This document shows, piece after piece, positions 26,603 through 45,796 of a stretch of 48,552 nt of DNA (the first letter of the stretch is position 1; the number at the start of each line of letters is the position of its first letter). The stretch is from a virus. The DNA lies in IMG/VR virus record IMGVR_UViG_3300008113_000441, positions 1 through 48,552 of that record; one strand, written 5' to 3'. Position numbers and translations under genes: made by a program. The notes below the pieces were generated by a model, which was not told the origin of the DNA, searched no databases, and saw only the letters and a list, made by a program, of their open reading frames with translations.

Positions 26603-29600
26603 TTATACATTAACTTGCGCAATTTCTTGATTATTAAATTGTACATAAATAGAACCTCTAACAAGACCTATTAATAAGTCTTCGTTTGAAGTAGTTTTAT
26701 TGTCTAACATAATTTTAAAATTAGTGATTAATCCTATATTTTGATAATTAGTTAGAATGATTGAATAAATTAAATTAAGGCGATTTGTGACATTTTGAAT
26801 ATTGTCTATTTTAGAAAATAGTTGTGAATAGCTTGCCCACTTAATAGTTTTCTTAATATGATTTAAGGTGTTTCTAACATTTAATTTTGATAAAATTGAA
26901 TTATTACTATTAGAAAATTGATGTGTTTTATCAGAGTAAAAAGTGTAGGTTGTTTGACTGTTTTTTCTATCTGCATATAGAACATTGATATTCAGATTAT
27001 TAATTAATGCGACATATTTTTCTCGTGTTAAATCATCATGATTAACAAAACTTTCTAATACGTCAAAAATAGTTAAATCTCCTAAACCATTAATATTGAT
27101 ATTATGAATAGGATTCATTTGTCTTTTTAAAGCAATATTATCAAATGATGTTAAGGCACTTAATGCCAATAAACCTGCAGGTGCAATGATGGTTTGTTCA
27201 GGTCCTAAAATGTTAATTCTTTTTTCAATACCTGATAAGAGTTTAAATAATGCATAATTACCAAATGAGGCAATATTGGATATTTGATTATAATTTTGAT
27301 TCCAATTATTAATTGTATTGTTATTGTTAAAATTTAAAGTTTGATTTAAATAAATATATTTTTGATCAGACCAAGTATATTGTAATTCACTCTCGCCAGC
27401 ATCTAATTTCAAGAAATCTCTACCATAAACAATGTTATTACTATTATTATAAAAAGGCTGATCTAACAATAATATGGAATAGGGATTATCGGCTGCTAAA
27501 ATTGAAGCATGTTCAATAAGTTCAGTATTAAAAATTTCAGGTAAATAAATAAAATCACTCAAACAATTTGACTCGTCATGAATAATTTCTAAACCAATTT
27601 TATATAATTCTCTTAAATAAGCACTTTTTTCTAAACCTCTATTATTAATACAATATTCATCTAAATCTAATAAATTTAAACCGTCCCAACCACCTGTCAT
27701 TTCTATATTAAAACTTAATATATTAATATCACTAAATCTTTTCACTTCAGAAATTGTATCAATTCTAGAATTAATAAAGCCTTTTTTACTAATTATAAAA
27801 TAATAAAAAAGATTTTCAATGTCGGTATTATTTTCAAATAAACCTTCCCAAAATTTATTATCTGCAATTGAATCAATATTTTGGCCAGATTGTAAATATC
27901 TAGCTAATTGCCAATATTGAATTGTTTTAAGTTCATCGTATTTATTTAATAATAATATTTTTTCTAAATGAAACATGTCATCGTAATTATCAATATCGTA
28001 ATTATCATAAAAATTTAAATTAAGATACTCGGTTTGATTAATACCACGATTTAAATGTAAATTTTTATGATAATATTCTAAAACTGAAAAGCTGTCATTG
28101 TTTTTTCTTTCTTTAATTAAATTCTGTTCTTCCACAGCGCTTTTAAAAAATATTTTTTCAAATTTAATTTTTTTAATTCTAACATTTTTTAAATTATCAC
28201 CCCACGCATGGCTTTTTAATAAATTAATATTTTCAAAATTATTAGAACTTATATTTTCAAATTGAGGTGTTACCACATAATTTTTATTTAAAATGTTTAA
28301 ATTAGGAATTAAATCACTCTTTAACTTATTATGTCCTAAAAAGCCGGCGGGAATTGATTCTTGTAAGATTGATTTATTCATAACGTGATCGGACAATTCT
28401 ACTCTAATCCAAGGATTTTGCGAAGAATGTTCAATATAATTATGAGTTATTTTACGAGTCGCAACGTCAAAATATGTAGCTTGAGTTCCAATAACCTTTC
28501 CTATAAAATTACTACTGTCTGGATTTAAATCAAGATTATTAAATTCATAAATGACATTTTCATTTTTTTTATTGATTAAATGAAGATGAAAGCGTGCCCA
28601 ACCGGCAGATTCAGTTAAAGAATCAGGAATAATTTTAATTCCATATTGATTTCCTAATTTACCTGGTGATAATGCATGTATTTTAAATAATTTAATGACT
28701 CTATCTTTTAAATGTAAACCTGATTCACTACGAGTATTAAGATTTTGATTATTATAAAATCCTTGACTTACTATCCATGGAGTTTGCGCATGATGATATG
28801 CCTCCTGAAATGTTTTTAAATTATTATTATTGAGTAATGTTAAAGTAACTGTATTGTTAGTAATATGATTTTCTTCAAAATTAATTTTATTAAAAATGTC
28901 ATCATAATGTATTAAAGCATAACCAAAATCATTTAAACGATGTATATTAGTATTTAAAACTTCTTTCCAATAAAAATCAGAGTCAATATTAAAATCAAAT
29001 GTAATATTTCTAGGAGGTAAATTAGTAGGTTGTGTAAAAAAAATTTTATCTTGAAAATTTTTTTGTCCAGGGGAATCTTCATTAACAATCTGTGTACTAT
29101 TATTTAATCCTACAATGTTTAAGGATAATTTACCGTTATTCAACACCGTTAAATTTAAACTACAATTTTTTGTTAAAATAATAGCCTGATATTGTGTATT
29201 ACTGCCTGCATTTTCAAAATTAAAAAAATTCTTATTGATCGCTCTCGTGTTGAAATTTAATGATAATAGATATAAATTGTGTTGATTATTTAATAAAAAA
29301 CCTGGTTTTAAAGAAGGAAAATCAGGTAGATCTAGACCTGCTAGCCTGGTATAATTTAATTGGGCGCCTGTTTCTAATACTGAATATCCTGCAATATAAG
29401 GCAAAATATGTGCTTGAAATTCTTTATGATTATCAATAAAATTACCATAATTGGTTTCAAAACTTTGAAGAATATCATTACCTCCATTATTAAAATTACC
29501 ATTAATAAATGTCGGTACGAAAGGTATACCCCAAATTGCATTACCTAAAATTGAAGTTGACTGTCGATTTAACTGTTCAGTCCCTTTTGTTAAAAAATTT

Positions 29601-29644
29601 CTAATCGAATTTTGAAATTCAACTTTTCTCTCAGCACTTATCAT
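26603..29644 (-). CDS. Divergent tail sheath paralog
   Basis: This 1013-aa protein aligns by eye with the two other sheath genes nearby: an N-terminal GIPFVPTF where they have GPAFVPTV/VPVIL, TPWIVSQGF where the major sheath has SPWVVSQDF, VIKLFKIHALSPG where it has IFKLFRFHALDDG, GFLGHNKLKSDLI where it has GFAGIKKLHLKSK, and MTGGWDGLNLLDLDEYC where it has MQGGFDGLDIFDEDKHY. The C-terminus keeps the helix-plus-strand sheath end. It is Asn-rich and far more diverged than the others. It is encoded after the tube gene, separate from the other sheath genes. A minor sheath ring or a host-adapted variant is possible. The start is preceded by a stem-loop and a poor Shine-Dalgarno. Confidence 0.75.
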   Translation of the reverse strand: MISAERKVEFQNSIRNFLTKGTEQLNRQSTSILGNAIWGIPFVPTFINGNFNNGGNDILQSFETNYGNFIDNHKEFQAHILPYIAGYSVLETGAQLNYTRLAGLDLPDFPSLKPGFLLNNQHNLYLLSLNFNTRAINKNFFNFENAGSNTQYQAIILTKNCSLNLTVLNNGKLSLNIVGLNNSTQIVNEDSPGQKNFQDKIFFTQPTNLPPRNITFDFNIDSDFYWKEVLNTNIHRLNDFGYALIHYDDIFNKINFEENHITNNTVTLTLLNNNNLKTFQEAYHHAQTPWIVSQGFYNNQNLNTRSESGLHLKDRVIKLFKIHALSPGKLGNQYGIKIIPDSLTESAGWARFHLHLINKKNENVIYEFNNLDLNPDSSNFIGKVIGTQATYFDVATRKITHNYIEHSSQNPWIRVELSDHVMNKSILQESIPAGFLGHNKLKSDLIPNLNILNKNYVVTPQFENISSNNFENINLLKSHAWGDNLKNVRIKKIKFEKIFFKSAVEEQNLIKERKNNDSFSVLEYYHKNLHLNRGINQTEYLNLNFYDNYDIDNYDDMFHLEKILLLNKYDELKTIQYWQLARYLQSGQNIDSIADNKFWEGLFENNTDIENLFYYFIISKKGFINSRIDTISEVKRFSDINILSFNIEMTGGWDGLNLLDLDEYCINNRGLEKSAYLRELYKIGLEIIHDESNCLSDFIYLPEIFNTELIEHASILAADNPYSILLLDQPFYNNSNNIVYGRDFLKLDAGESELQYTWSDQKYIYLNQTLNFNNNNTINNWNQNYNQISNIASFGNYALFKLLSGIEKRINILGPEQTIIAPAGLLALSALTSFDNIALKRQMNPIHNININGLGDLTIFDVLESFVNHDDLTREKYVALINNLNINVLYADRKNSQTTYTFYSDKTHQFSNSNNSILSKLNVRNTLNHIKKTIKWASYSQLFSKIDNIQNVTNRLNLIYSIILTNYQNIGLITNFKIMLDNKTTSNEDLLIGLVRGSIYVQFNNQEIAQVNV

Positions 29645-29650
29645 ATTTTA

Positions 29651-29680
29651 CTCAATATTATTTTTATAATAAATATTGAG
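29651..29680 (-). promoter_or_regulatory. Stem-loop abutting the divergent sheath start
   Basis: CTCAATATT (29651-29659) pairs with AATATTGAG (29672-29680), a 9-bp perfect stem ending 6 nt before the ATG at 29644. The loop contains TATAAAAA leftward (29661-29668), 7/8 to the T4 late box. No U-tract follows, so it is not a standard terminator for the tube gene. Confidence 0.4.
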
Positions 29681-29701
29681 TTTTAAGATAAAGCTTTAAA
29701 A

Positions 29702-30196
29702 TTAGTATTGCAAGACGCAGTTATCAAACTTAATCCCTAATGAAACTGTTAAAGGATTACCATCATCATCATATGACAAATTATTAAAATTAGCACTAGT
29801 TAATTGACAACCTTTCATATCCCATAATTCAATCACTGTTCCAACTGGATCCAGTAATTTAATTTGACAATCACGCTTATAAAAATCGGCATAACCGGCA
29901 CGACCTGATACTGTTTCTTGATGTGTTCTAACCCATTCCATTACTTGTTGTGCCCCAGAAGGTGCAATAGGATCATACAATTCAACACTCAAATCACCGA
30001 AGGTTAACTTACCAGCAATATGACGTTGTGAATTAATATAATTAATAGTGGTTGAACCAATAGTAATAGAAGGACGAGCTGCTGTCTTAATTAAAAAGGA
30101 ATCCAATCCTTCAATTGCAAAGACCCAACGATTACTTCTCTTAGGTTCAAATTTATTTGGTATCATCTCCGCGACGCTTAATGTTTCAATCGCCAT
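29702..30196 (-). CDS. Tail tube protein (gp19-like)
   Basis: This 164-aa protein matches the T4 gp19 tube family: an N-terminal FEPKRSNRWVFAIEGLDSF (about 17-35), IKTAARPSI, then GKLTFGDLSVELYDPIAPSG and a C-terminal beta strand FDNCVLQY. Hexamers of this protein form the inner tube, with length set by the tape measure. It has a strong Shine-Dalgarno (AGGAG) and lies between the major sheath and the divergent sheath paralog. Its length equals that of T4 gp19 within a residue or two. Confidence 0.93.
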   Translation of the reverse strand: MAIETLSVAEMIPNKFEPKRSNRWVFAIEGLDSFLIKTAARPSITIGSTTINYINSQRHIAGKLTFGDLSVELYDPIAPSGAQQVMEWVRTHQETVSGRAGYADFYKRDCQIKLLDPVGTVIELWDMKGCQLTSANFNNLSYDDDGNPLTVSLGIKFDNCVLQY

Positions 30197-30245
30197 TTCG
30201 TTTTTTCTCCTGAATGTTATTTTCTGTTATTATAGATTAACTAGG

Positions 30246-33200
30246 TTAATCAATGGAATTTCTAACCTCAAAGTCAAGAGAAATAAATTCAATTGACTTA
30301 GTAGGTTGTAAATAAATCTTACCACGAATAGTATTATTCTCTACATCAATCTGTGTAGTAGTGGTAGTATCAATTTGTACCTTATATCTCTCAATCCCTT
30401 GTTGGGCTTGAATATTCGCCAATATTGGCTCAACCGCATTTGCAAACGCTTTCAATGTATCAGCACGATTAGGTTGGAACAAGAAGGTATTCGCAATCGC
30501 TTTCACCTTACGACGTACATAAATCAATAAACGTCTGACATTGATTCTATCCAAAGCTGATGGATTCTTTAGCAATGTCTTTTGTCCAAAGACGTGTACT
30601 TGATCACGACCAGCTGGAATATAAATTGGATTAATATCACTATCATACAATTCATCTAACTGCTCACGACTCATGGCAAACTCAGTCGCACTAGCATTCA
30701 CCAACCCACGATTAATACCTGCTGGGGCATACCATGGAGCATTCCCACCATTATCAGCACGACTCATCACGCCTAAGGCAGCAATACTAGGCGGTACCTT
30801 AATTGAACCCCCATTAGGCTTATTCAACATCACATCTGGGAAGAATGACGCAGCAAATGAAGTATCCATCCCACGACCACTAAATTCATCAATAGTTTGA
30901 CCGACTGATGGCTTATCAGTTGCATTAATAATAAACGCACCATTCGCATTCTTCTGTTCAATATCCATAATATACATTGTATCAAAACGATTTTCAGCCG
31001 CTTGCACTGCATAATTGGTGACTAAACGTTCTCTAATTCCCGGTACCACCAGCAATTGAATTTCAGCAGCTGCCTTATCAGTATAAACATCAATTCCTTG
31101 TTGATATGTTTCAATCACAGGACCTGTCTTAGATGTCTTTTGACCTTCCTTATAACAAGCAGCATCTTTCAAATAATGCTTATCTTCATCAAAAATATCT
31201 AAACCATCAAACCCGCCTTGCATGAAAAAGGAAAACGATAAATATTTATTGTTAGATAAACTTAAATCTTTAGTTAATCTAAAGAAACGACGAGCAGCGC
31301 CAGTAGGTACACTATCATTAGCTGTCACAGAATTTCTAATAAAAATTGCGTCACCCCACTTCTTATTGTCAATCTTCAAAGCAGCTCCACCTTGATGAGT
31401 AACTCTAATTTTCTCTAAATGGAAAAAATTAGGATCGTTTGTATAATCTAACTCTTCAGTTAAACTACCTTCTACAATTACAGGTGACCAATTATTCTTA
31501 AAATATTTAGTGTATGAAGTTAATGATTTATTAAAGGTTTGTTCAATATATTCTTTAAAACCATCAATTGTCACATCAATATTTTCTTTCAATGCAAATT
31601 TAACACCCCAAGGAACAATTTTAGCATCTTTAGGATCATCAGCGCCTTGAATAATTTTACCAATTGAACGTATCATAGGAATTGGTGGTTGTTGTAAATT
31701 ATGTAAATGTTGTGCATTTAACACTTGAGATTTATCATTAAATTTACTCTTTAAATGCAACTTTTTAATACCTGCAAAACCGCAAGGCAAAGTTTCAGCT
31801 GCAATATCACCTACGGCTACTTCACCTGATACTTCTACTCTTACAAATTTATTAGTCACAGGGTAAGAACCTTCTTCTTGTAAACCAGGTTTAGTAGCTT
31901 CAAAATCCCAATAAACCTTCTTATCACCAATTACACGAGCAATATAATTAGAAGCTGAGGGGTCTAAGGATAATCTCTTCCAGCTAGCTAATATTGAACT
32001 CTTTAAAGGATTGGAATCCCATTTTTGCAAAGTAATATCAAAAGTTCCAAATCCACCAAATTCTCCAGGTGTTAAATTACTAACAAGGATTCTAACTTGT
32101 TGATTACCAATTTCACCATCATCTAAGGCATGAAAACGGAATAATTTAAAAATACCATCACCCATACCGTCATTATTAAGACCGTCAGCCACAACACCAA
32201 AATCTTGACTCACTACCCATGGTGAAACAGCGGTTTGAAATTTATTGTCAAATTCTTCAAAAGAACGTGTATCATTCGCCACACAAAAAGCACCAGCAGT
32301 AATAACTAATGCATTATTCCCACTACTAGTAGTAATACCATTGACGCTTGAGGTAATAACATTTGAATGAATATCATAATAAGAATGTAAGTAATGACCT
32401 AATTCTTCTATTTTATGTGGATCGGTATTTAATACCTTATAAAAATAGTTTGATTTATTAATATCAAAAGAACACTCAATTGCTTTATTTTGACCATTAT
32501 AACCAATTAAAAATAATGTAAATGAAGAATCATTTACATTTAAATCGCCTATCTCATAACCAATTGAATCTTGAACATTTTTACCAACATCTGGAGCAGT
32601 CGTTTTTGATGCAATTGTTGATTTTAGGGAAGCCTTTACATTATGAGGGGTCATTAAAATACCTCTAACCAAAGGTATTGCTGTACTCGCATTAGAGTCA
32701 CTTATTGCAATTGTTAAGGCAGTTGCATCAGTCATATTTGCTTCATCAACAGTAATTGTAGCAGCTCCAACTGCATCAACTAATTGTACTAATTTGACAA
32801 TAGCTCCATCAACGCTGGCAGTGATTTTATAATCAGTAAATGCAGCATCAATTGATTTTTTGATTTCACAAGCCTGCAAAAAATTATCTGTTAACTTAGT
32901 TTTTAATGCATTAAATTTAACAACAACGTCATTATCATCATTATCAATTAAATCAGTAAAAGTTGTAATTAAAGCAGTCGTCGCAGCTTTTGCAGTTGTA
33001 AAAGTAGGAACATCATTAGCATTATCTAATGTCGTAATGCTATCACTAATAGCAGTTAAATTAGTTTGTAAATCTGTAATTAACGCTTCAATAACATCTA
33101 AATCCGAACCTATCACTTTTTTAATACTATCTAATACGATTGCAGCTTTTAAACTATTCCTGTTTGTAACTAAAGTGTTATATTTATTTTGTAAAGCAGT

Positions 33201-33968
33201 AAACGCAGCAGTAACAGGAGCAATTAGTGAAGTATGATCAGCCAAATCAGTCACTGCAGTTTGCAATGTTGTTTTTAAAGTTAATAGGTCTGCAAAATTA
33301 GTTGAAATACTTGTAATTAAATCAATCGTTGCTGTAGGTATCAAAATCTGAGAGGCTACATTGGTTACAGCGGCTTTAAAAGTAAATTGACGTGCAGTTT
33401 CATTAGCCCCGATAGGTGTAATTGAAAAATCATCTTCTGCGACAATCTTACTTTTATCAACAGTAATAGTTGCTGTTTCGAAACTTTGTAATTGCAAGCC
33501 AGCTTCGGTTAAATATTTTGAATTAGTTGCATCTTTTACAAAATGCCCTAAAATAAAACTTTTACCTTTTACGTCAAGAGTTGTATCTCCAGAAGTATTA
33601 ACAGCATTACTATTACTGATGACAACACCATCAGTTCCTAATTTTTTAGAACCGACGATGAAACCAGGTTCGGAACCGACGCCTAATAGACGCACAAAAG
33701 CCCCTTGCCCTGGATTACCACTCATCCATTCACTAACCGCCAAAGGCCCGAACAAATTGGAGTTTGAATCAAGACCTTTATCGCTAAAAGAGCCGAAGGT
33801 ATCTTGAAATTCTTGAATGTCGGCAAAAACTGTTGGTACGAATGCAGGACCACGCTTGGCACGCCCCACTACACCTGCCGGTGTCCCAGTTAGCACTCTA
33901 TTTACTGGTGTTGGCGCTGATAAATCAATTTCCCTTAAGGAAACTCTAGCTGAACCTTGTCCGGCCAT
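30246..33968 (-). CDS. Major tail sheath protein (gp18-like) with helical insertion
   Basis: This 1240-aa contractile sheath protein has the N-terminal GVVGRAKRGPAFVPTVFADI typical of gp18, FHALDDGEIGN, LSLDPSASNYIARVIGDKKV (about 655-675), an LPCGFAGI segment, MQGGFDGLDIFD and a conserved C-terminal domain with DRINVRRLLIYVRRKV, FQPNRADTL and KIYLQPTKSIEFISLDF. T4 gp18 is 659 aa. The extra length includes an Ala/Thr/Leu-rich helical block at about 215-375, set inside a small beta domain (FSITPIGANETARQFTFKAA on one side, YKITASVDGAIVKLVQ on the other). The other two paralogs lack this block. It has a very strong Shine-Dalgarno (ACAGGAG), so this is probably the main sheath. Confidence 0.92.
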   Translation of the reverse strand: MAGQGSARVSLREIDLSAPTPVNRVLTGTPAGVVGRAKRGPAFVPTVFADIQEFQDTFGSFSDKGLDSNSNLFGPLAVSEWMSGNPGQGAFVRLLGVGSEPGFIVGSKKLGTDGVVISNSNAVNTSGDTTLDVKGKSFILGHFVKDATNSKYLTEAGLQLQSFETATITVDKSKIVAEDDFSITPIGANETARQFTFKAAVTNVASQILIPTATIDLITSISTNFADLLTLKTTLQTAVTDLADHTSLIAPVTAAFTALQNKYNTLVTNRNSLKAAIVLDSIKKVIGSDLDVIEALITDLQTNLTAISDSITTLDNANDVPTFTTAKAATTALITTFTDLIDNDDNDVVVKFNALKTKLTDNFLQACEIKKSIDAAFTDYKITASVDGAIVKLVQLVDAVGAATITVDEANMTDATALTIAISDSNASTAIPLVRGILMTPHNVKASLKSTIASKTTAPDVGKNVQDSIGYEIGDLNVNDSSFTLFLIGYNGQNKAIECSFDINKSNYFYKVLNTDPHKIEELGHYLHSYYDIHSNVITSSVNGITTSSGNNALVITAGAFCVANDTRSFEEFDNKFQTAVSPWVVSQDFGVVADGLNNDGMGDGIFKLFRFHALDDGEIGNQQVRILVSNLTPGEFGGFGTFDITLQKWDSNPLKSSILASWKRLSLDPSASNYIARVIGDKKVYWDFEATKPGLQEEGSYPVTNKFVRVEVSGEVAVGDIAAETLPCGFAGIKKLHLKSKFNDKSQVLNAQHLHNLQQPPIPMIRSIGKIIQGADDPKDAKIVPWGVKFALKENIDVTIDGFKEYIEQTFNKSLTSYTKYFKNNWSPVIVEGSLTEELDYTNDPNFFHLEKIRVTHQGGAALKIDNKKWGDAIFIRNSVTANDSVPTGAARRFFRLTKDLSLSNNKYLSFSFFMQGGFDGLDIFDEDKHYLKDAACYKEGQKTSKTGPVIETYQQGIDVYTDKAAAEIQLLVVPGIRERLVTNYAVQAAENRFDTMYIMDIEQKNANGAFIINATDKPSVGQTIDEFSGRGMDTSFAASFFPDVMLNKPNGGSIKVPPSIAALGVMSRADNGGNAPWYAPAGINRGLVNASATEFAMSREQLDELYDSDINPIYIPAGRDQVHVFGQKTLLKNPSALDRINVRRLLIYVRRKVKAIANTFLFQPNRADTLKAFANAVEPILANIQAQQGIERYKVQIDTTTTTQIDVENNTIRGKIYLQPTKSIEFISLDFEVRNSID

Positions 33969-34051
33969 AATAAAATTCTCCTGTTTTAATTTATCTTTTA
34001 ATATTTTAAATATTTAAAGACCGGAGATTTTTTTAAATTATCTCAATAAAA

Positions 34052-36154
34052 TTAAGCAAATGTTACGCCACTATTGGTCACAATAAAGTCCATCGCAATA
34101 AATTCTACCACTCGAGTGGGCACCACAATAATTTTACCACTCAAAATATTTTGGTCAGCTTCAGTCGGATCATTATTAATTACTACTCTAAAGTTCTCAA
34201 TCCCACTGCTTCTTTGAATATTAGATAACAAAGCATTTACCTTTGTCGCAAAGTCATTACGCACTGCAGCTGAATTTGGTTCAAACAATAAACGTTGAGC
34301 ATGTCTTTCCACACCACGTTTAATTTCAATCATCAAACGTCTAACATTCACACGATTTAAAGCTGTATTAGCCACTTGCAACGTCTTTTGACCAAAAATC
34401 ACATATTGATTAGAAGGGAATGTGGCGATAGGATTAATACGAGCTTCATACAAATCATCTCTATCATCAGCTCTTAATCTAACATTAACACCTTTAATAC
34501 GAGGATTTAAACCATTCTCAAAACCTGCAGGAGCAAACCAAGGTTGAATAACTCTAGAATTACCTTCACTACGTGCCAAAGCCCCTAATGCTACAATAGA
34601 TGAAGGACATTTTAAAGTTCTCTTTACGACAGCACCTACCACAGGATCTGATGCATCTTCCAACATCACATCTGGGAAATACGTCGCAACATAATTATTG
34701 TCAAAATTACGAGACCCTAATTTCACAATTGTATTAGTCACATCAGCTTTCTTAACGCCATCTACTTTTTCATCATATAAACGAATTCCGTCTTTACTAT
34801 AATGAGGTAAATCCATCAAATAAATAGCTTTACCATATTCTTCCACTTTACGAGCTGCATAATTGCAGATTAAAGGTTCACGAATACCAGGCAACAATAG
34901 AATATGTACCGTCGCAGTAGCAGGCTCTAACATTTGGTCAAGACCAGCAGTATAAGAAGCAATAATATTATTCGCAAAACCTGTACCTTGCATAGGAATT
35001 AAAGCGTTAGTAGCAGCTAATGCACTAGCAAAACCTGTAGGACTAGCTTTACCAGCCACCCCACCATCAACTGACATGTCTTCTGTACTTGAAGCTCTAT
35101 CATTCATATTCATGCTATCTTTATCAAAGATATTTAAACCGTCAAAACCACCAAACATAGGAGCTGTAAATTTAGCAACAACTGAAAACTTATTGAATTT
35201 TTCTTTATTTTCTGATAATATTGTGGCTAAAGTTATACGGGCTGTTTTGCCTGTATCTTCATTGTCGCTGGTATCAATTACATAAGTGGAATTATTATAA
35301 TCACCATTTCTAACATAGATAGCTTCTTTAAAAGTAGTGGCAACCGAAGACGATAAATCAGCGACTGCGATAGAAGTATATTGGGTTGATAAAGCAACAC
35401 GAGCCAAAGTAAATTTATTATTGTTAAAATCGTCAGCTTCGGTTGAATTTTCGGCATAAACAACATCACTACCTGCAATACCCATAAATTTACAATAATT
35501 TTCTACAATCTTATTGATAATTTCCCCAGCAGTACCACGAGTATTAGGTTTATCAATACTATCAATATTAAAATTCATCAAACCCCAATATTGCCCAGTG
35601 CTAACTGCCTCTTGAGAACCAGCTTGTCCTAAATAAGGATTATTAATAGAATAATCTCTACTACCACTAGTAATCTTAAAACGATAAGGTAAAGGTGGTA
35701 AAACAGCTGTATTTAAATTTGCATTGCCTGTTACCTCTGATGTTAATGTATTTCCTGTTTTTAAGACAGGAATACCTTTAAAACCGAAAGGCAAAGATTC
35801 ATCAGGGATTTCATTGTTTCTAACATCATCTGACATAATAATACGGATACGTGCTGACTGATTAGGATTTTCACCTTCAGTATAGAGACGTCTTTCATCA
35901 GTATTTTCAACATCAATATTATAAAAGGTCTTTTGGTCTCCAATCAATTTAGCTACATAATTGCTTGAAGATGGATCCAAACTACAATTTGCATATGATT
36001 CTAGAACAATAGGATTTTCATCAGTGTCATTTAAATCTCTTAATTCTACATTAAAAGTTCCAAATTTATAATTGACATCTGTTGAAGCTCTTAAATTACT
36101 GATACTAATCTTATATTTGCTGGCAGCATAAGCTCCATCATCAATCGCTTCAAG
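34052..36154 (-). CDS. Third tail sheath paralog, C-terminal part after a frameshift
   Basis: This frame encodes about 700 aa of a gp18-type sheath: LDPSSSNYVAKLIGDQKTFY, an LPFGFKGI segment, MFGGFDGLNIFDKDSMNMND, LLLPGIREPLICNYAARKVE, TYFPDVMLED and a C-terminal LNRVNVRRLMIEIKRGVE. No ATG or Shine-Dalgarno begins it: the first candidate start is a TTG at 35980 inside the conserved SLDPSSSNY motif, and the frame is open without a stop upstream to about 36168. It is the continuation of the fragment at 36091-36939 after a -1 shift. Joined, they give about 962 aa. See the finding on missing residues at the junction. Confidence 0.85.
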   Translation of the reverse strand, partial: LEAIDDGAYAASKYKISISNLRASTDVNYKFGTFNVELRDLNDTDENPIVLESYANCSLDPSSSNYVAKLIGDQKTFYNIDVENTDERRLYTEGENPNQSARIRIIMSDDVRNNEIPDESLPFGFKGIPVLKTGNTLTSEVTGNANLNTAVLPPLPYRFKITSGSRDYSINNPYLGQAGSQEAVSTGQYWGLMNFNIDSIDKPNTRGTAGEIINKIVENYCKFMGIAGSDVVYAENSTEADDFNNNKFTLARVALSTQYTSIAVADLSSSVATTFKEAIYVRNGDYNNSTYVIDTSDNEDTGKTARITLATILSENKEKFNKFSVVAKFTAPMFGGFDGLNIFDKDSMNMNDRASSTEDMSVDGGVAGKASPTGFASALAATNALIPMQGTGFANNIIASYTAGLDQMLEPATATVHILLLPGIREPLICNYAARKVEEYGKAIYLMDLPHYSKDGIRLYDEKVDGVKKADVTNTIVKLGSRNFDNNYVATYFPDVMLEDASDPVVGAVVKRTLKCPSSIVALGALARSEGNSRVIQPWFAPAGFENGLNPRIKGVNVRLRADDRDDLYEARINPIATFPSNQYVIFGQKTLQVANTALNRVNVRRLMIEIKRGVERHAQRLLFEPNSAAVRNDFATKVNALLSNIQRSSGIENFRVVINNDPTEADQNILSGKIIVVPTRVVEFIAMDFIVTNSGVTFA

Positions 36155-36939
36155 ACTGTGTTTGAGTTAGGATCTGATTTAATTGTGCATAAATCTTTAT
36201 CTACCGGGAAATGTAGATATAATAAATAACCATATTCTTCAATTGCATAAGGGTCTGTATTTAAAACCTTAGCAATGTAATTATTCGAATCCACATCTAA
36301 AGAAACAGTCACACTTCTTTCTTTAATAGTAGTATCATTATTACCAACAGTAACATTAATAATAAACTCACCTGCTGTAACTTTTCCTTTATCATTTAAA
36401 TTACCAGCTGTTTTAATTTGTAATTTACAATTCTTATGTAAAAAGAACATGGCTCTAATTAATTGACAACTAGACAAAGCAAAAGTAGTATTATTTAATG
36501 TAAACATACCACTTGCAAATTTTTCATTTGACTGAACAATATGTTCGGCAGCTAATAATTGTACGCCACCAAATCCGTTTGCAACTTCACATTTAAAACC
36601 TGCCGATGGGGCAGTCCCATTATTTTCTAACGCATCAGAACCTAAACCTAAAGTTCTAATAAATTGAACTGACGCCTCAAAACCCCCTGATTGCGTTGGA
36701 TCTTTTGATGTAAAAAATTCCGATACGGCATGCCCTGTCAATTTATCCTTTTGAATATCCCCAAAAACCTGCTTATAATCGTCCAAGGAATTCAGGATCA
36801 CAGGCACAAAGGCTGGACCCTTCTCGGCTGGACCGATAATACCGACCGGAGATGAATTGGGCTCTTTTTTTGGTGGTTTACTTTGTATCTCGATTTCTCT
36901 CTCGAAAAATCCAGGTGATTTAAATACTTGCTCACTCAT
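36091..36939 (-). CDS. Third tail sheath paralog, N-terminal part before a frameshift
   Basis: This ATG-started frame has a strong Shine-Dalgarno (AGGAG) and encodes the sheath N-terminus: FKSPGFFEREIEI, then SPVGIIGPAEKGPAFVPVIL (about 30-49), a SDYKQVFG-like segment, VSEFF, and SNNYIAKVLNTDPYAIEEYG. It matches the major sheath up to about residue 262 (SNTV), then reads about 20 unrelated residues to a stop. The correct sheath sequence continues in the -1 frame from 36154. Gene order (gp15, then this gene) is that of the normal sheath in T4-like phages. It is either a pseudogene, a sequence error or a truncated product. Confidence 0.8.
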   Translation of the reverse strand: MSEQVFKSPGFFEREIEIQSKPPKKEPNSSPVGIIGPAEKGPAFVPVILNSLDDYKQVFGDIQKDKLTGHAVSEFFTSKDPTQSGGFEASVQFIRTLGLGSDALENNGTAPSAGFKCEVANGFGGVQLLAAEHIVQSNEKFASGMFTLNNTTFALSSCQLIRAMFFLHKNCKLQIKTAGNLNDKGKVTAGEFIINVTVGNNDTTIKERSVTVSLDVDSNNYIAKVLNTDPYAIEEYGYLLYLHFPVDKDLCTIKSDPNSNTVLKRLMMELMLPANIRLVSVI

Positions 36940-43130: not shown

Positions 43131-43385
43131 ATGAGAATTTCGTCAAATGATTTAAGACAAATTATTATGGAAGAATATACCCGTGCAAAGAGAGTTAATA
43201 GATTGCATGAAGGAACCCAATATAACCCAATTCAATTGGATGCTAATGCTTTAAGAAGTATTATTCTTGAAGAATCTTATAAAAATCTCCAAGAGAGACG
43301 TAGTTTAAATGAAGGTCGTTCTGTTAAAATGACACCACAAATGTTGCGTCAGATGATTTTAGAAGAAAGTCGTAGATATCGTTAA
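43131..43385 (+). CDS. Protein made of three copies of an LRxIIxEE motif
   Basis: This 84-aa protein is built from three repeats about 34-38 residues apart: SSNDLRQIIMEEY, DANALRSIILEES and TPQMLRQMILEES. The first two units end in RLHEG and SLNEG, both L-x-E-G. The motif equals the N-terminal tag on other proteins here, and each unit has a possible [LI]-x-E cleavage point, as used by T4-type prohead proteases. It may be a packaged internal protein, a protease substrate or an inhibitor. Shine-Dalgarno AAAGGAT. Its stop is one base from the stop of the convergent gene at 43387. Confidence 0.7.
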   Translation: MRISSNDLRQIIMEEYTRAKRVNRLHEGTQYNPIQLDANALRSIILEESYKNLQERRSLNEGRSVKMTPQMLRQMILEESRRYR

Positions 43386-43724: not shown

Positions 43725-44102
43725 TTAACGAGGAAAGTCTTTTCCACGTTGGACAATGTTAAATTCCATTTCGTCGGCTTGGAATGTATCTTTAATAATT
43801 TCACTAATGTTAGACCAATCAAAAGGTTTACAACTGAAAATATCAATAAAGGCGTAATTTTTTAATGGAAACGTGTGAATAGAAATATGCGACTCAGCGA
43901 TAATCACCATTCCGGTAATCCCCTCATCTTCTGGCACTAAACCACTATATGGGAAAACATATGGCTGCGTAATTTTGGTCATGCCAATCTTGTCAGGCAA
44001 TTCATGTAAAAATTTAAAAATTTTATTGTAGTCGTTTAATGAGGTATTATCTTGACACTTAATGTCAAAGGTTAAATGAGGTCCGAATGGTTCTGCTGTC
44101 AT
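43725..44102 (-). CDS. speD: S-adenosylmethionine decarboxylase (SpeD)
   Basis: This 125-aa prokaryotic (class 1b) pyruvoyl enzyme decarboxylates S-adenosylmethionine to supply aminopropyl groups for spermidine. The self-cleavage motif AESHISIHTFP is present: Ser71 (pyruvoyl-forming), His76 at +5 and Cys91 at +20 (in DIFSCKPF) have the spacing of bacterial SpeD. The length fits. It sits downstream of the nucleotide kinase gene with a strong but distant AGGAG. SpeD is a known auxiliary gene in marine cyanomyoviruses. Polyamines can neutralise packaged DNA; the role here is inferred. Confidence 0.92.
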   Translation of the reverse strand: MTAEPFGPHLTFDIKCQDNTSLNDYNKIFKFLHELPDKIGMTKITQPYVFPYSGLVPEDEGITGMVIIAESHISIHTFPLKNYAFIDIFSCKPFDWSNISEIIKDTFQADEMEFNIVQRGKDFPR

Positions 44103-44116
44103 CTGAGTCTTATCTC

Positions 44117-44326
44117 CTAATCTTCGCGTTTGGGTTCTAATAAACTTTGTGCTCGAGTAATTTCACGATTTAAATTACACAAGTCTGATTGTAAATATGA
44201 TTTATTTTGTGCTAATTTTAAAATTTCTGTGTCAATGTTAACAATTTCTTCACGAATTAAATTCATCTTCTCTCGCAACTGTAAGAGACCTAATTCAGTA
44301 TATACATTTTCTTTTAATTCATTCAT
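44117..44326 (-). CDS. Short coiled-coil protein
   Basis: This 69-aa protein is predicted to be a single long helix with heptads (LREKMNLIREEIVNIDTEIL and similar). Its ATG overlaps the stop of the kinase gene as ATGA, so the two are translationally coupled. It is followed by SpeD after 14 bp. I do not recognise a family; it may be a small partner or assembly factor. Confidence 0.7.
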   Translation of the reverse strand: MNELKENVYTELGLLQLREKMNLIREEIVNIDTEILKLAQNKSYLQSDLCNLNREITRAQSLLEPKRED

Positions 44327-44850
44327 TTTAAAATACCTAATTCTTTAAGCTTTTGTAAGCAATAAGTGTATGTTTCTTCAGGGGTACGATGTTCGGTATT
44401 AATATACACGACTTTATTCTTAGTCCATGTACTTAACTCGGCATATTTCTGACTAATCAATGACCATTTTTCATCCAAGCCTTCTAACTCATCACCTTTT
44501 AAAGGAGGATTATCTCGATTAGTAATAATCAACACGCTATCTGGGATTGTAGTCATTAAATCATCTAATTTATGCAAAAATTCAAAATCATTACCACGAT
44601 TAAAAACTTGACTGTACACCCATTCAGTTGTCCAAGCTCGATCTAAGACAACCGAGGCGGTCGAATTTTTTAAGTATGTGAAAAAATATAAATCTGTATA
44701 TCTTAACATAAGTTTATATCTTTCAGGATGCTTCCATTCACCATGTTCATAAGGGTTTTTATGATATGTTAAATTTAAGCCTTGTGCAATATTTTTAGCC
44801 AAAGTAGTTTTACCACTACCATCAGGACCATCAAATAATAGTACAGCCAT
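44323..44850 (-). CDS. Thymidylate kinase-like nucleoside monophosphate kinase
   Basis: This 175-aa P-loop kinase has Walker A GPDGSGKTT (8-16), a DRxxxxxxVY segment (LDRAWTTEWVYSQVF, about 69-83) like the DR motif of dTMP kinases, and a lid-like basic region. It would phosphorylate dTMP or a related dNMP, fitting the ThyX-like gene immediately upstream, which ends 1 bp away. T4 gene 1 dNMP kinase is an alternative name; the Tmk fold is the more likely match. Confidence 0.82.
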   Translation of the reverse strand: MAVLLFDGPDGSGKTTLAKNIAQGLNLTYHKNPYEHGEWKHPERYKLMLRYTDLYFFTYLKNSTASVVLDRAWTTEWVYSQVFNRGNDFEFLHKLDDLMTTIPDSVLIITNRDNPPLKGDELEGLDEKWSLISQKYAELSTWTKNKVVYINTEHRTPEETYTYCLQKLKELGILK

Positions 44851-44851
44851 T

Positions 44852-45796
44852 TTATACCTTCTTACTGTCAGCTAATTTTTGTAAACGTCCTACAAATCCA
44901 ATTGATTTAAAATCTTCAATCATTTCGCGTTCACCTGGGAATAATAAATCGTCAGGTAAGTTTTGTAATTCAAAATACCACGCAGATTTACTGAAATCAT
45001 AATCGCATGAGTGATCTAACAAACTTGGGATTTTATTATTGACTGATGGGGCACGGCCAGTATTACCAAAAACCTTATCGACATTTAGACATACTTTATT
45101 AGTACCCATGCCGTCCATTTTGCTTAATAAAGTTGACCAGCCAGAACCTGCTACGATATCACTCCCGTCATCTCTAAGATATCGGCGACGCAATTCCCTT
45201 AAGATTAATCGGCCGACCAAATTCAATTCATCTGTTAAACCGTTTTCACAACGTCTCGCAAAATATCCTAATAAAGCTGCATAATTACATTGCATCACTA
45301 AACTTGTTTGTTGGGAATGCATCACTAAATAACGACAGTCTTGTGGAGGAATACCTTCATTATACATGTCATCGTATAATTCTTGTGATAATCTAACTAA
45401 TTCCACTGCTCTATCTCTAAATTTATCATTTTGATATACGTTAATTGGAATAGTCACATTGTGATTAATATGTTGCGGCATTTGACTTTCAACCACATAA
45501 GCCCAACCGACTCGACCACGAGTAATTTGAGCCAAAGCCACACGACTTAAACCTGTAATTTTAATTTCAAAATTTAAAACTTCCATTGGGGTTGGTAAGG
45601 CATGGCGATTAATCACATCGAGACAGGCCTGAATATGTTCAGGATTAGTATGATCAAACGGGACATCTTGTAAAGTAATCCAAGTTTGACGAAACCAATT
45701 CCAAAACATTTCAAAAGGCTTATCATGTGAAGAAGACATGATTTCAACACCGATAGAGTCTAAAAAGTTGGTAGTAAATTGAGGAGTAGCTGTCAT
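44852..45796 (-). CDS. ThyX-family thymidylate synthase homolog with degenerate motif
   Basis: This 314-aa protein keeps the ThyX framework: PMEVLNFEIKITGLSRVALA (70-89), then the ThyX signature position (93-109), and the later CRYLVMHSQQTSLVMQCNYA and FARRCENGLTDELNLVGRLI segments, where ThyX has DARxVLPxxxxTxxxxTxNxR and LRxxxxAQxEIR. The signature RHRxxSxNExSxRY reads R93-G-R-V-G-W-A-Y-V-V-E-S: the His, first Ser and the Arg-Tyr end are changed. Canonical ThyX methylates dUMP using FAD and folate. The changes suggest an altered reaction or a variant subfamily. It leads the operon of kinase, coiled coil and SpeD. Confidence 0.75.
   Translation of the reverse strand: MTATPQFTTNFLDSIGVEIMSSSHDKPFEMFWNWFRQTWITLQDVPFDHTNPEHIQACLDVINRHALPTPMEVLNFEIKITGLSRVALAQITRGRVGWAYVVESQMPQHINHNVTIPINVYQNDKFRDRAVELVRLSQELYDDMYNEGIPPQDCRYLVMHSQQTSLVMQCNYAALLGYFARRCENGLTDELNLVGRLILRELRRRYLRDDGSDIVAGSGWSTLLSKMDGMGTNKVCLNVDKVFGNTGRAPSVNNKIPSLLDHSCDYDFSKSAWYFELQNLPDDLLFPGEREMIEDFKSIGFVGRLQKLADSKKV

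What the first reader, a model, noticed from the sequence alone, without database searches (positions are those of the whole stretch)
45480..45530. ThyX homolog with altered signature residues
The RHRxxSxNExSxRY signature is changed at His (Gly94), the first Ser (Trp98) and the Arg-Tyr end, while the rest of the ThyX frame is kept. Those residues contact dUMP and FAD in known ThyX. The gene sits with a nucleotide kinase. It could make a modified pyrimidine rather than dTMP, which phages use against host nucleases.
Basis: partly seen in the sequence, partly recalled or inferred. Interest (0 to 1): 0.5.

Follow-up and report, generated by a model that had tools for sequence, protein, structure and literature searches.

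The report
Repurposed thymine-synthase relative in phages
A group of large phages carries, often beside an ordinary thymine-building enzyme, a second relative in which several catalytic residues have been swapped in the same way in every member found and which travels with its own nucleotide kinase, so it probably builds an unusual DNA letter rather than ordinary thymine.

Summary
ORF 44852-45796(-) is a ThyX-fold protein with RGRVGWAYVVESQMP at 45476-45520 where ThyX has RHR..S..NE.S.RY. It is not decay: 15 of 15 distinct relatives (window included), all on phage contigs, share H53 to L, H79 to G, S83 to A, R90 to M and Y91 to P; none of 11 canonical ThyX compared has any of these. R78, R80, S88, R147 and R174 stay. 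dN/dS is 0.06-0.16.

Eight of 17 contigs also carry a canonical ThyX; in two of these it is followed by its own dTMP-kinase-like gene. The altered copy has a different, divergent kinase beside it or at most two genes away in 16 of 17 loci (the other contig ends). A deoxyribosyltransferase is usual; dUTPase/5'-nucleotidase and flavin-reductase-like genes are frequent, though none of these three is in the window.

Best reading: a dedicated route to a 5-substituted deoxyuridine nucleotide. Precedent: phage SP-15, whose DNA carries a hypermodified uracil, has an ordinary ThyX plus a differently altered one (gp130) near a deoxyribosyltransferase.

The parts
44852..45796 (-). ThyX-like protein, 314 aa: Thy1 domain about residues 51-204 plus a conserved C-terminal extension
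   Evidence: Z 12.6 to T. maritima ThyX 1o26
45476..45520 (-). altered signature R93-GRVGWAYVVESQM-P107 (canonical RHRxxSxNExSxRY); R78, R80 and S88 equivalents kept; H79, S83, R90 and Y91 equivalents replaced
   Evidence: the same replacements in 15 of 15 distinct relatives
45596..45598 (-). codon of Leu67, at the place of catalytic/folate-stacking His53
   Evidence: L in 15 of 15, H in 11 of 11 canonical
44855..45178 (-). C-terminal extension, residues 207-314 (GSGW, CLN.D.VFGNTGR, KSAW motifs), outside the Pfam match
   Evidence: alignment; pLDDT under 50 at 233-238
44323..44850 (-). divergent P-loop deoxynucleotide (dTMP-like) kinase, 175 aa, one base after the ThyX-like stop codon
   Evidence: found in 15 of 16 record sets
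44117..44326 (-). small ORF, 69 aa, overlapping the kinase end; by eye a similar small ORF lies at the same place in L002 and L018
43725..44102 (-). S-adenosylmethionine decarboxylase (SpeD) homologue, 125 aa; found at the same place in L002 and L018 only, of 17 loci
   Evidence: link to the ThyX-like protein unproven

Best explanation
The protein is a paralogue of ThyX that these phages keep, in many cases beside a normal thymidylate synthase. It makes a different deoxyuridine nucleotide, most likely a C5-substituted dUMP. SHOWN: ThyX homology and fold; fixed replacement of residues that handle folate and the flavin-bound carbon (H53, Y91, R90) with retention of the uracil-activating Arg174 and part of the phosphate site; strong purifying selection; a canonical ThyX in 8 of 17 contigs; a recurrent kinase and deoxyribosyltransferase and often a flavin-reductase-like and a dUTPase/5'-nucleotidase gene close by. 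INFERRED: the enzyme still holds a uracil (deoxy)nucleotide against flavin but attaches or finishes the C5 carbon differently (for example a 5-hydroxymethyl group released by water, or a longer aldehyde-derived chain). INFERRED: the neighbouring divergent kinase then phosphorylates the modified monophosphate, while the pyrophosphatase, nucleotidase and deoxyribosyltransferase clear competing dUMP/dTMP species. INFERRED: the triphosphate goes into phage DNA.
For: H53L, H79G, S83A, R90M, Y91P in 15 of 15 against 0 of 11, with Arg174 and S88 kept. ThyX fold and profile homology. dN/dS 0.06-0.16. One clade, 100/100, with all 11 canonical rows, 7 of them companions, outside it. Second, canonical ThyX in 8 of 17 records, and no ThyA in 17. 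In 2 of the 7 distinct companion loci looked at (G012, G007) the canonical ThyX has its own Thymidylate_kin neighbour, so these two phages have two ThyX-kinase pairs. Kinase in 15 of 16 record sets, deoxyribosyltransferase in 14, FNR-like in 8, full MazG+NT5C in 10 (profiles were built from these same loci). Of 16 kinase relatives in viral contigs, 15 lie on ThyX-like contigs and one on a contig of the same metagenome as L012. SP-15 encodes two Thy1 proteins, and its DHPU is made before polymerisation (PMC5977210, passages). Its second copy has a deoxyribosyltransferase three genes upstream. In normal ThyX an acid quench traps a hydroxymethyl-dUMP formed by water after methylene transfer to C5 (PMC4913046, passages).
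Against: No biochemical evidence. Y91 and R90 also matter for methylene transfer in normal ThyX, so their loss may mean loss of C5 chemistry altogether. The equivalents of H79 and R90 touch the dUMP phosphate in PolB (equivalence by my alignment) and are gone, so even dUMP binding is unsure. A companion ThyX is absent from 9 of 17 records, including the 96.6 kb G013 (records may be fragments), and 5 of 7 companions looked at have no kinase directly after them. The 17 contigs may descend from one phage lineage, so synteny is partly common descent. The deoxyribosyltransferase, FNR-like and nucleotidase genes are not in the window. Of the two records read whole, G001 lacks FNR-like and full MazG+NT5C and G010 lacks full MazG+NT5C. 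SP-15 gp130 is not demonstrably of the same branch (hhalign 6.9%). The AF2 model is weak at residues 91-110.
Confidence: 0.52

Rival explanations
1. It is simply a divergent second thymidylate synthase: other residues have taken over, and it makes dTMP under other conditions (for example low folate or low oxygen).
For: Thy1 score well over the Pfam cut-off; uracil Arg174, S88, R78 and R80 kept; next to a dTMP-kinase-like gene; SP-15's second copy was also named a thymidylate synthetase by its annotators.
Against: Fails the thyX equivalog cut-off in 3 of 3 members tested (52.6, 36.9, 35.0 against 87.9) while 5 of 5 companions tested pass. H53, R90 and Y91 are all lost; a Y91 mutation alone costs about 1000-fold in flavin oxidation rate during methylation (PMC11940539, passages). 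Redundant where a canonical ThyX is present.
Confidence: 0.13
2. It is a catalytically dead ThyX that forms mixed tetramers with phage or host ThyX and tunes it (pseudoenzyme). ThyX active sites sit at subunit interfaces, so a dead partner could block or reshape them.
For: Loss of several catalytic residues at once; ThyX active sites lie between three monomers (PMC3498832, passages).
Against: A dead partner would not be expected to keep an own kinase, nor to fix G94, W98, P107 and RRCENGLTDELN in all 15 distinct members. dN/dS 0.06-0.16.
Confidence: 0.13
3. It is a flavin enzyme on pyrimidine nucleotides with another job than C5 alkylation, for example reduction or hydrolytic salvage together with the deoxyribosyltransferase and nucleotidase, to break down host nucleotides or a defence signal.
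For: Partners are partly catabolic: NT5C-type nucleotidase, dUTPase_2, deoxyribosyltransferase.
Against: A kinase close to it points to building up rather than breaking down; Arg174, which activates C5 by deprotonating N3, is kept (role from PMC8316439, passages).
Confidence: 0.15

Closest known systems
ThyX / flavin-dependent thymidylate synthase (T. maritima TM0449, PF02511)
   Same: Fold (VIA Z 12.6, rmsd 3.0, 201 residues), profile homology, Q75/R78/R80/S88/R147/N163/R174 kept
   Different: H53, H79, S83, R90, Y91, E144 and (less surely aligned) Q180 replaced; one inserted Trp; about 108-residue C-terminal extension; below the thyX equivalog cut-off
Bacillus phage SP-15 gp130 and relatives (second Thy1 protein; SP-15 DNA holds dihydroxypentyluracil)
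   Same: Second, altered Thy1 protein in a phage that also has an ordinary one; deoxyribosyltransferase close by. By eye both lack an intact RHR and the Tyr of the RY end, and both have a Trp-Ala pair at about the same place
   Different: 413 aa, keeps S-x-R, Arg174 falls opposite a gap; profile comparison with our family gives only 6.9% probability. The function of gp130 is itself a published guess (PMC5977210, passages)
PolB, UMP/dUMP C5-methylase of polyoxin biosynthesis
   Same: ThyX homologue repurposed for a different nucleotide product; tied best structural match (Z 12.5)
   Different: Uses Arg82, His83, Ser96, Arg98 and Tyr99, i.e. keeps the His, Arg and Tyr of the signature (PMC5003785, passages; equivalence mine); still transfers methyl from folate
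Phage dUMP hydroxymethylases (phage phiW-14 type; ThyA family by recall)
   Same: Same proposed role: a phage synthase making a modified dUMP, with a dTTPase that removes dTTP (PMC5977210, passages)
   Different: Unrelated fold (recalled); no PF00303 match in any of 17 records

Membership tests
ThyX (flavin-dependent thymidylate synthase) | Thy1 domain homology | tested here: met
   73.6 bits against 24.8; hhalign 98.3%
ThyX (flavin-dependent thymidylate synthase) | ThyX fold | tested here: met
   AF2 model pTM 0.78; rows 1-47 of the 50 PDB entries shown are ThyX or PolB; the signature loop itself is low-confidence
ThyX (flavin-dependent thymidylate synthase) | NCBIfam thyX equivalog cut-off | tested here: not met
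   52.6, 36.9, 35.0 against 87.9 (3 members tested); 5 of 5 companion ThyX tested pass
ThyX (flavin-dependent thymidylate synthase) | signature RHRxxSxNExSxRY | tested here: not met
   RGRVGWAYVVESQMP; H79, S83, R90 and Y91 replaced in 15 of 15. Control: all 11 canonical keep S83, S88, R90 and Y91, but the RHR part varies among them (K for R in 5, one KYQ)
ThyX (flavin-dependent thymidylate synthase) | catalytic His53 | tested here: not met
   Leu in 15 of 15, His in 11 of 11 canonical
ThyX (flavin-dependent thymidylate synthase) | FAD binding, NADPH oxidation, dTMP formation | not testable with these tools
   needs purified protein
SP-15 gp130-type second Thy1 protein | sequence membership in the same branch | tested here: inconclusive
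   profile-profile 6.9%, E 0.005, 121 columns
SP-15 gp130-type second Thy1 protein | coexists with an ordinary Thy1 protein | tested here: met
   8 of 17 records; among 7 gp130 records only SP-15 has a second one over the cut-off, and phiXF1 a weak second place of 18.4 bits
ThyA-type dUMP/dCMP hydroxymethylase | PF00303 domain | tested here: not met
   0 of 17 records
dTMP kinase (neighbour gene) | TIGR00041 / PF02223 cut-offs | tested here: not met
   29.8 against 83.25 bits; 24.6 against 27. Control: the two kinases beside canonical ThyX also miss TIGR00041 (43.7, 58.7) but pass PF02223 (40.7, 50.9). P-loop DGPDGSGKT present

The most novel reading that the evidence does not exclude
A folate-independent branch of the ThyX fold: the loss of His53, Tyr91 and Arg90 frees the folate side of the flavin, and the enzyme joins dUMP C5 to the carbon of another aldehyde through a flavin N5 adduct (ThyX reacts with free formaldehyde, PMC8316439, abstract start and passages), giving a 5-alkyl or hydroxyalkyl dUMP that its own kinase carries toward the triphosphate. 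It would be the missing first step for hypermodified uracils of the SP-15 kind, possibly evolved more than once (this family and the gp130 branch).
Probability: 0.17. Interest if true: 0.85.

Novelty: new variant of a known kind. Interest (0 to 1): 0.6.

Why it matters
How long-chain modified uracils such as that of SP-15 (described in the 1970s) are built is, to my knowledge, still unsettled, and phage Thy1 genes tend to be annotated as thymidylate synthases. A ThyX branch with a fixed, altered active site and its own kinase gives a compact gene set that can be expressed and assayed directly, and a sequence rule (SQMP instead of S.RY, Leu for His53) to separate it from true ThyX in annotation.

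Tried and rejected
Sequence search of PDB with the single protein and with profile A5 found no ThyX (the A5 hits are pentatricopeptide repeats scoring by repetition). Fold comparison was needed. Direct comparison of A5 with single SP-15 gp9 and gp130 sequences gave nothing; gp9 is an ordinary-scoring Thy1, so that test is insensitive. Two scans of 84,980 bacterial/archaeal genomes found no member, with pattern-limited sensitivity. Later viral scans added no contig to the 16. A more distant full-length relative exists in BFVD (A0A8S5SHX2, 37% identity) but was not fetched. YerA41 DNA has a roughly 1 kDa thymidine substitution (PMC9023294, abstract and passages) and YerA41_081 is a gp130 relative. 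No other Thy1 place in YerA41 was seen (two weak stretches, both inside YerA41_081), so YerA41 is only supportive. The 2020 paper (PMC7354516, passages) lists a thymidylate synthetase Gp127 whose identity with YerA41_081 I did not check. Decay or pseudogene was rejected by dN/dS and fixed replacements. A dCMP substrate was judged less likely because Arg174 is kept. A role of SpeD was left open: 3 of 17 loci.

Literature searches, none of which listed a paper on this family that I recognised: a CC-licensed PMC subset only, seen as capped listings; ten papers were read as passages only.

Full report
WHAT IS THERE. The window is an IMG/VR phage record of 48,552 bases with tail-sheath and baseplate genes. 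ORF 44852-45796 on the minus strand encodes 314 residues. It matches Pfam Thy1 with 73.6 bits over a 24.8-bit cut-off, but reaches only 52.6 bits for NCBIfam thyX where 87.9 are required. The signature segment reads R93-GRVGWAYVVESQM-P107 at 45476-45520 (DNA).

REGISTER OF THE SIGNATURE. A profile of 15 distinct members was aligned to a profile of 11 canonical ThyX (7 companions from sister contigs, three phage isolates, T. maritima; one further companion was dropped as a duplicate). The match is 98.3% probable, E 1.3e-14. W98 is an insertion. Replaced in 15 of 15 (T. maritima numbering): H53 to Leu67 (canonical 11 of 11 His), H79 to Gly94 (10 of 11 His, one Tyr), S83 to Ala99 (11 of 11 Ser), R90 to Met106 (11 of 11 Arg), Y91 to Pro107 (11 of 11 Tyr), E144 to Gln152 (10 of 11 Glu, one Gln), Q180 to Thr188 (11 of 11 Gln; alignment less sure there). 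R165 is Ala or Met (canonical 8 of 11 Arg). Kept in 15 of 15: Q75, R78, R80, S88, R147, N163, R174; of these only S88, R147 and R174 are invariant in the canonical set too.

WHAT THE RESIDUES DO. From passages read: R174 activates dUMP by deprotonating N3, and S88 and Y91, with R90 behind Y91, assist consumption of the flavin carbinolamine (PMC8316439). H53 stacks on flavin or folate and bonds to Y91 and N85 (PMC11940539). R78, R80, S88 and R90 bond dUMP (PMC3498832). In PolB the equivalents of H79 and R90 touch the phosphate (PMC5003785; the equivalence is mine). So the uracil-activating part is kept, and much of the carbon-delivery part is gone together with two phosphate contacts.

FOLD. 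An AF2 model from 15 sequences has pLDDT 76.7 and pTM 0.78; the blocks 91-100 and 101-110 average 57 and 54. Rows 1-47 of the 50 PDB entries shown are ThyX or PolB, Z 10.2-12.6; the next row has Z 3.4.

FAMILY. Viral scans gave 16 relatives plus the window, 15 distinct proteins, the others 56-79% identical to the window's. Two scans of bacterial and archaeal genomes gave none. Selection is purifying: dN/dS 0.185/1.237, 0.178/1.227, 0.161/1.001, 0.039/0.651, 0.169/2.07, while one pair gave no dS. The 15 form one clade (100/100) with all 11 canonical rows outside; several canonical rows have long branches, so deeper order is unsure.

TWO THYX PER PHAGE. All 17 records hold the altered protein (they were found by it), and 8 of 17 also hold a canonical Thy1 of 121.8-164.5 bits. 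Of the 8 records of 50 kb or more, 7 have both; G013 (96.6 kb) has not. G008/G009 and G011/G014 carry identical altered proteins, so the counts are not all independent. No record has ThyA. In G012 and G007 the canonical ThyX is directly followed by a Thymidylate_kin over its Pfam cut-off; the other 5 of 7 distinct companion loci show no such neighbour. The altered protein has its own, different kinase adjacent or with at most two genes between in 16 of 17 loci; the seventeenth contig, L012, ends in the gene. The companions pass the thyX equivalog cut-off in 5 of 5 tested. One companion, L032, itself has KYQ for RHR but keeps NEQSGRY.

NEIGHBOURHOOD. Profile searches over 16 record sets (G014 left out; most records only in part; profiles built from these loci) found the kinase in 15, deoxyribosyltransferase in 14, FNR-like in 8, and full MazG+NT5C in 10. 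A frequent order is nucleotidase, ThyX-like, kinase, FNR-like, deoxyribosyltransferase, PolIII alpha-like (the last named by eye). Against the idea of a fixed module: G001 (searched whole) has no FNR-like or full MazG+NT5C and its deoxyribosyltransferase lies some 60 kb away, and G010 (searched whole) has no full MazG+NT5C. Annotations rest on Pfam and PDB profiles: the deoxyribosyltransferase is strong (6.3e-17), the nucleotidase moderate (1.2e-4), the reductase weak (4e-4), the kinase matches over its P-loop end only. In the window itself only the kinase, a 69-aa ORF and SpeD follow. Among 16 kinase relatives in viral contigs, 15 sit on contigs with the altered protein and the other starts a contig of the same metagenome as L012, which ends in it.

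PRECEDENT. Phage SP-15 carries dihydroxypentyluracil in DNA, made before polymerisation, and encodes two Thy1 proteins, gp9 and gp130; the authors guessed gp130 to be the modified-uracil synthase (PMC5977210, passages). gp130 lies three genes after an annotated deoxyribosyltransferase. gp130 and relatives occur in 10 phage records, SP-15 counted twice, among them YerA41, whose thymidine carries about 1 kDa (PMC9023294, abstract and passages). gp130 is not demonstrably a close relative of our family (6.9%). Of 7 gp130 records searched only SP-15 has a second Thy1 over the cut-off; phiXF1 has a weak second place (18.4 bits) and Carin-5 has ThyA instead. The parallel is one of arrangement, not of shown descent.

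VERDICT. Most likely a repurposed ThyX in a route to a modified deoxyuridine nucleotide (0.52). The product, the carbon donor and any anti-restriction role are not shown.

Noticed in passing
L011:3283-3711 (also L033:199-642): Phage-encoded glycosylase much closer to the MBD4 glycosylase domain (E 6.2e-39) than to endonuclease III (4e-5) among solved structures. L033:199-642 has a similar gene by eye, with an HhH-GPD match just below cut-off. Fpg-like genes lie beside both (by clustering or by eye).
   Followed up: partly
L011:6923-7939, L012:6922-7932, L031:1499-2536: Glutamine synthetase-like genes directly beside the ThyX-like gene (two contigs) or the canonical ThyX (one contig); Pfam run on L011 and L031 only.
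   Followed up: partly
window 43725-44102: S-adenosylmethionine decarboxylase homologue shortly after the kinase, in the window, L002 and L018; might supply an amine for a base modification or just polyamines.
   Followed up: no
G010 (L046-L058); window 43131-43385: An N-terminal LRxLIRE-type peptide recurs in 18 of 314 G010 ORFs (shuffled mean 0.9, maximum 5), 2 of 42 in the window (mean 0.1, maximum 2) and 3 of 118 in G001 (mean 0.5, maximum 4); the pattern was loosened after looking. Could be a packaging or targeting signal, clear in G010 only.
   Followed up: partly
L027:8927-9976: A SAM-dependent methyltransferase gene lies between the ThyX-like gene and the kinase in this contig.
   Followed up: no
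window 26603-36939: Four ORFs of very different size match tail-sheath families, two of them weakly.
   Followed up: no
L068:22784-23521 (SP-15 gene 114): SP-15 is annotated with a 7-cyano-7-deazaguanine synthase, so its DNA might carry a second kind of modification.
   Followed up: no
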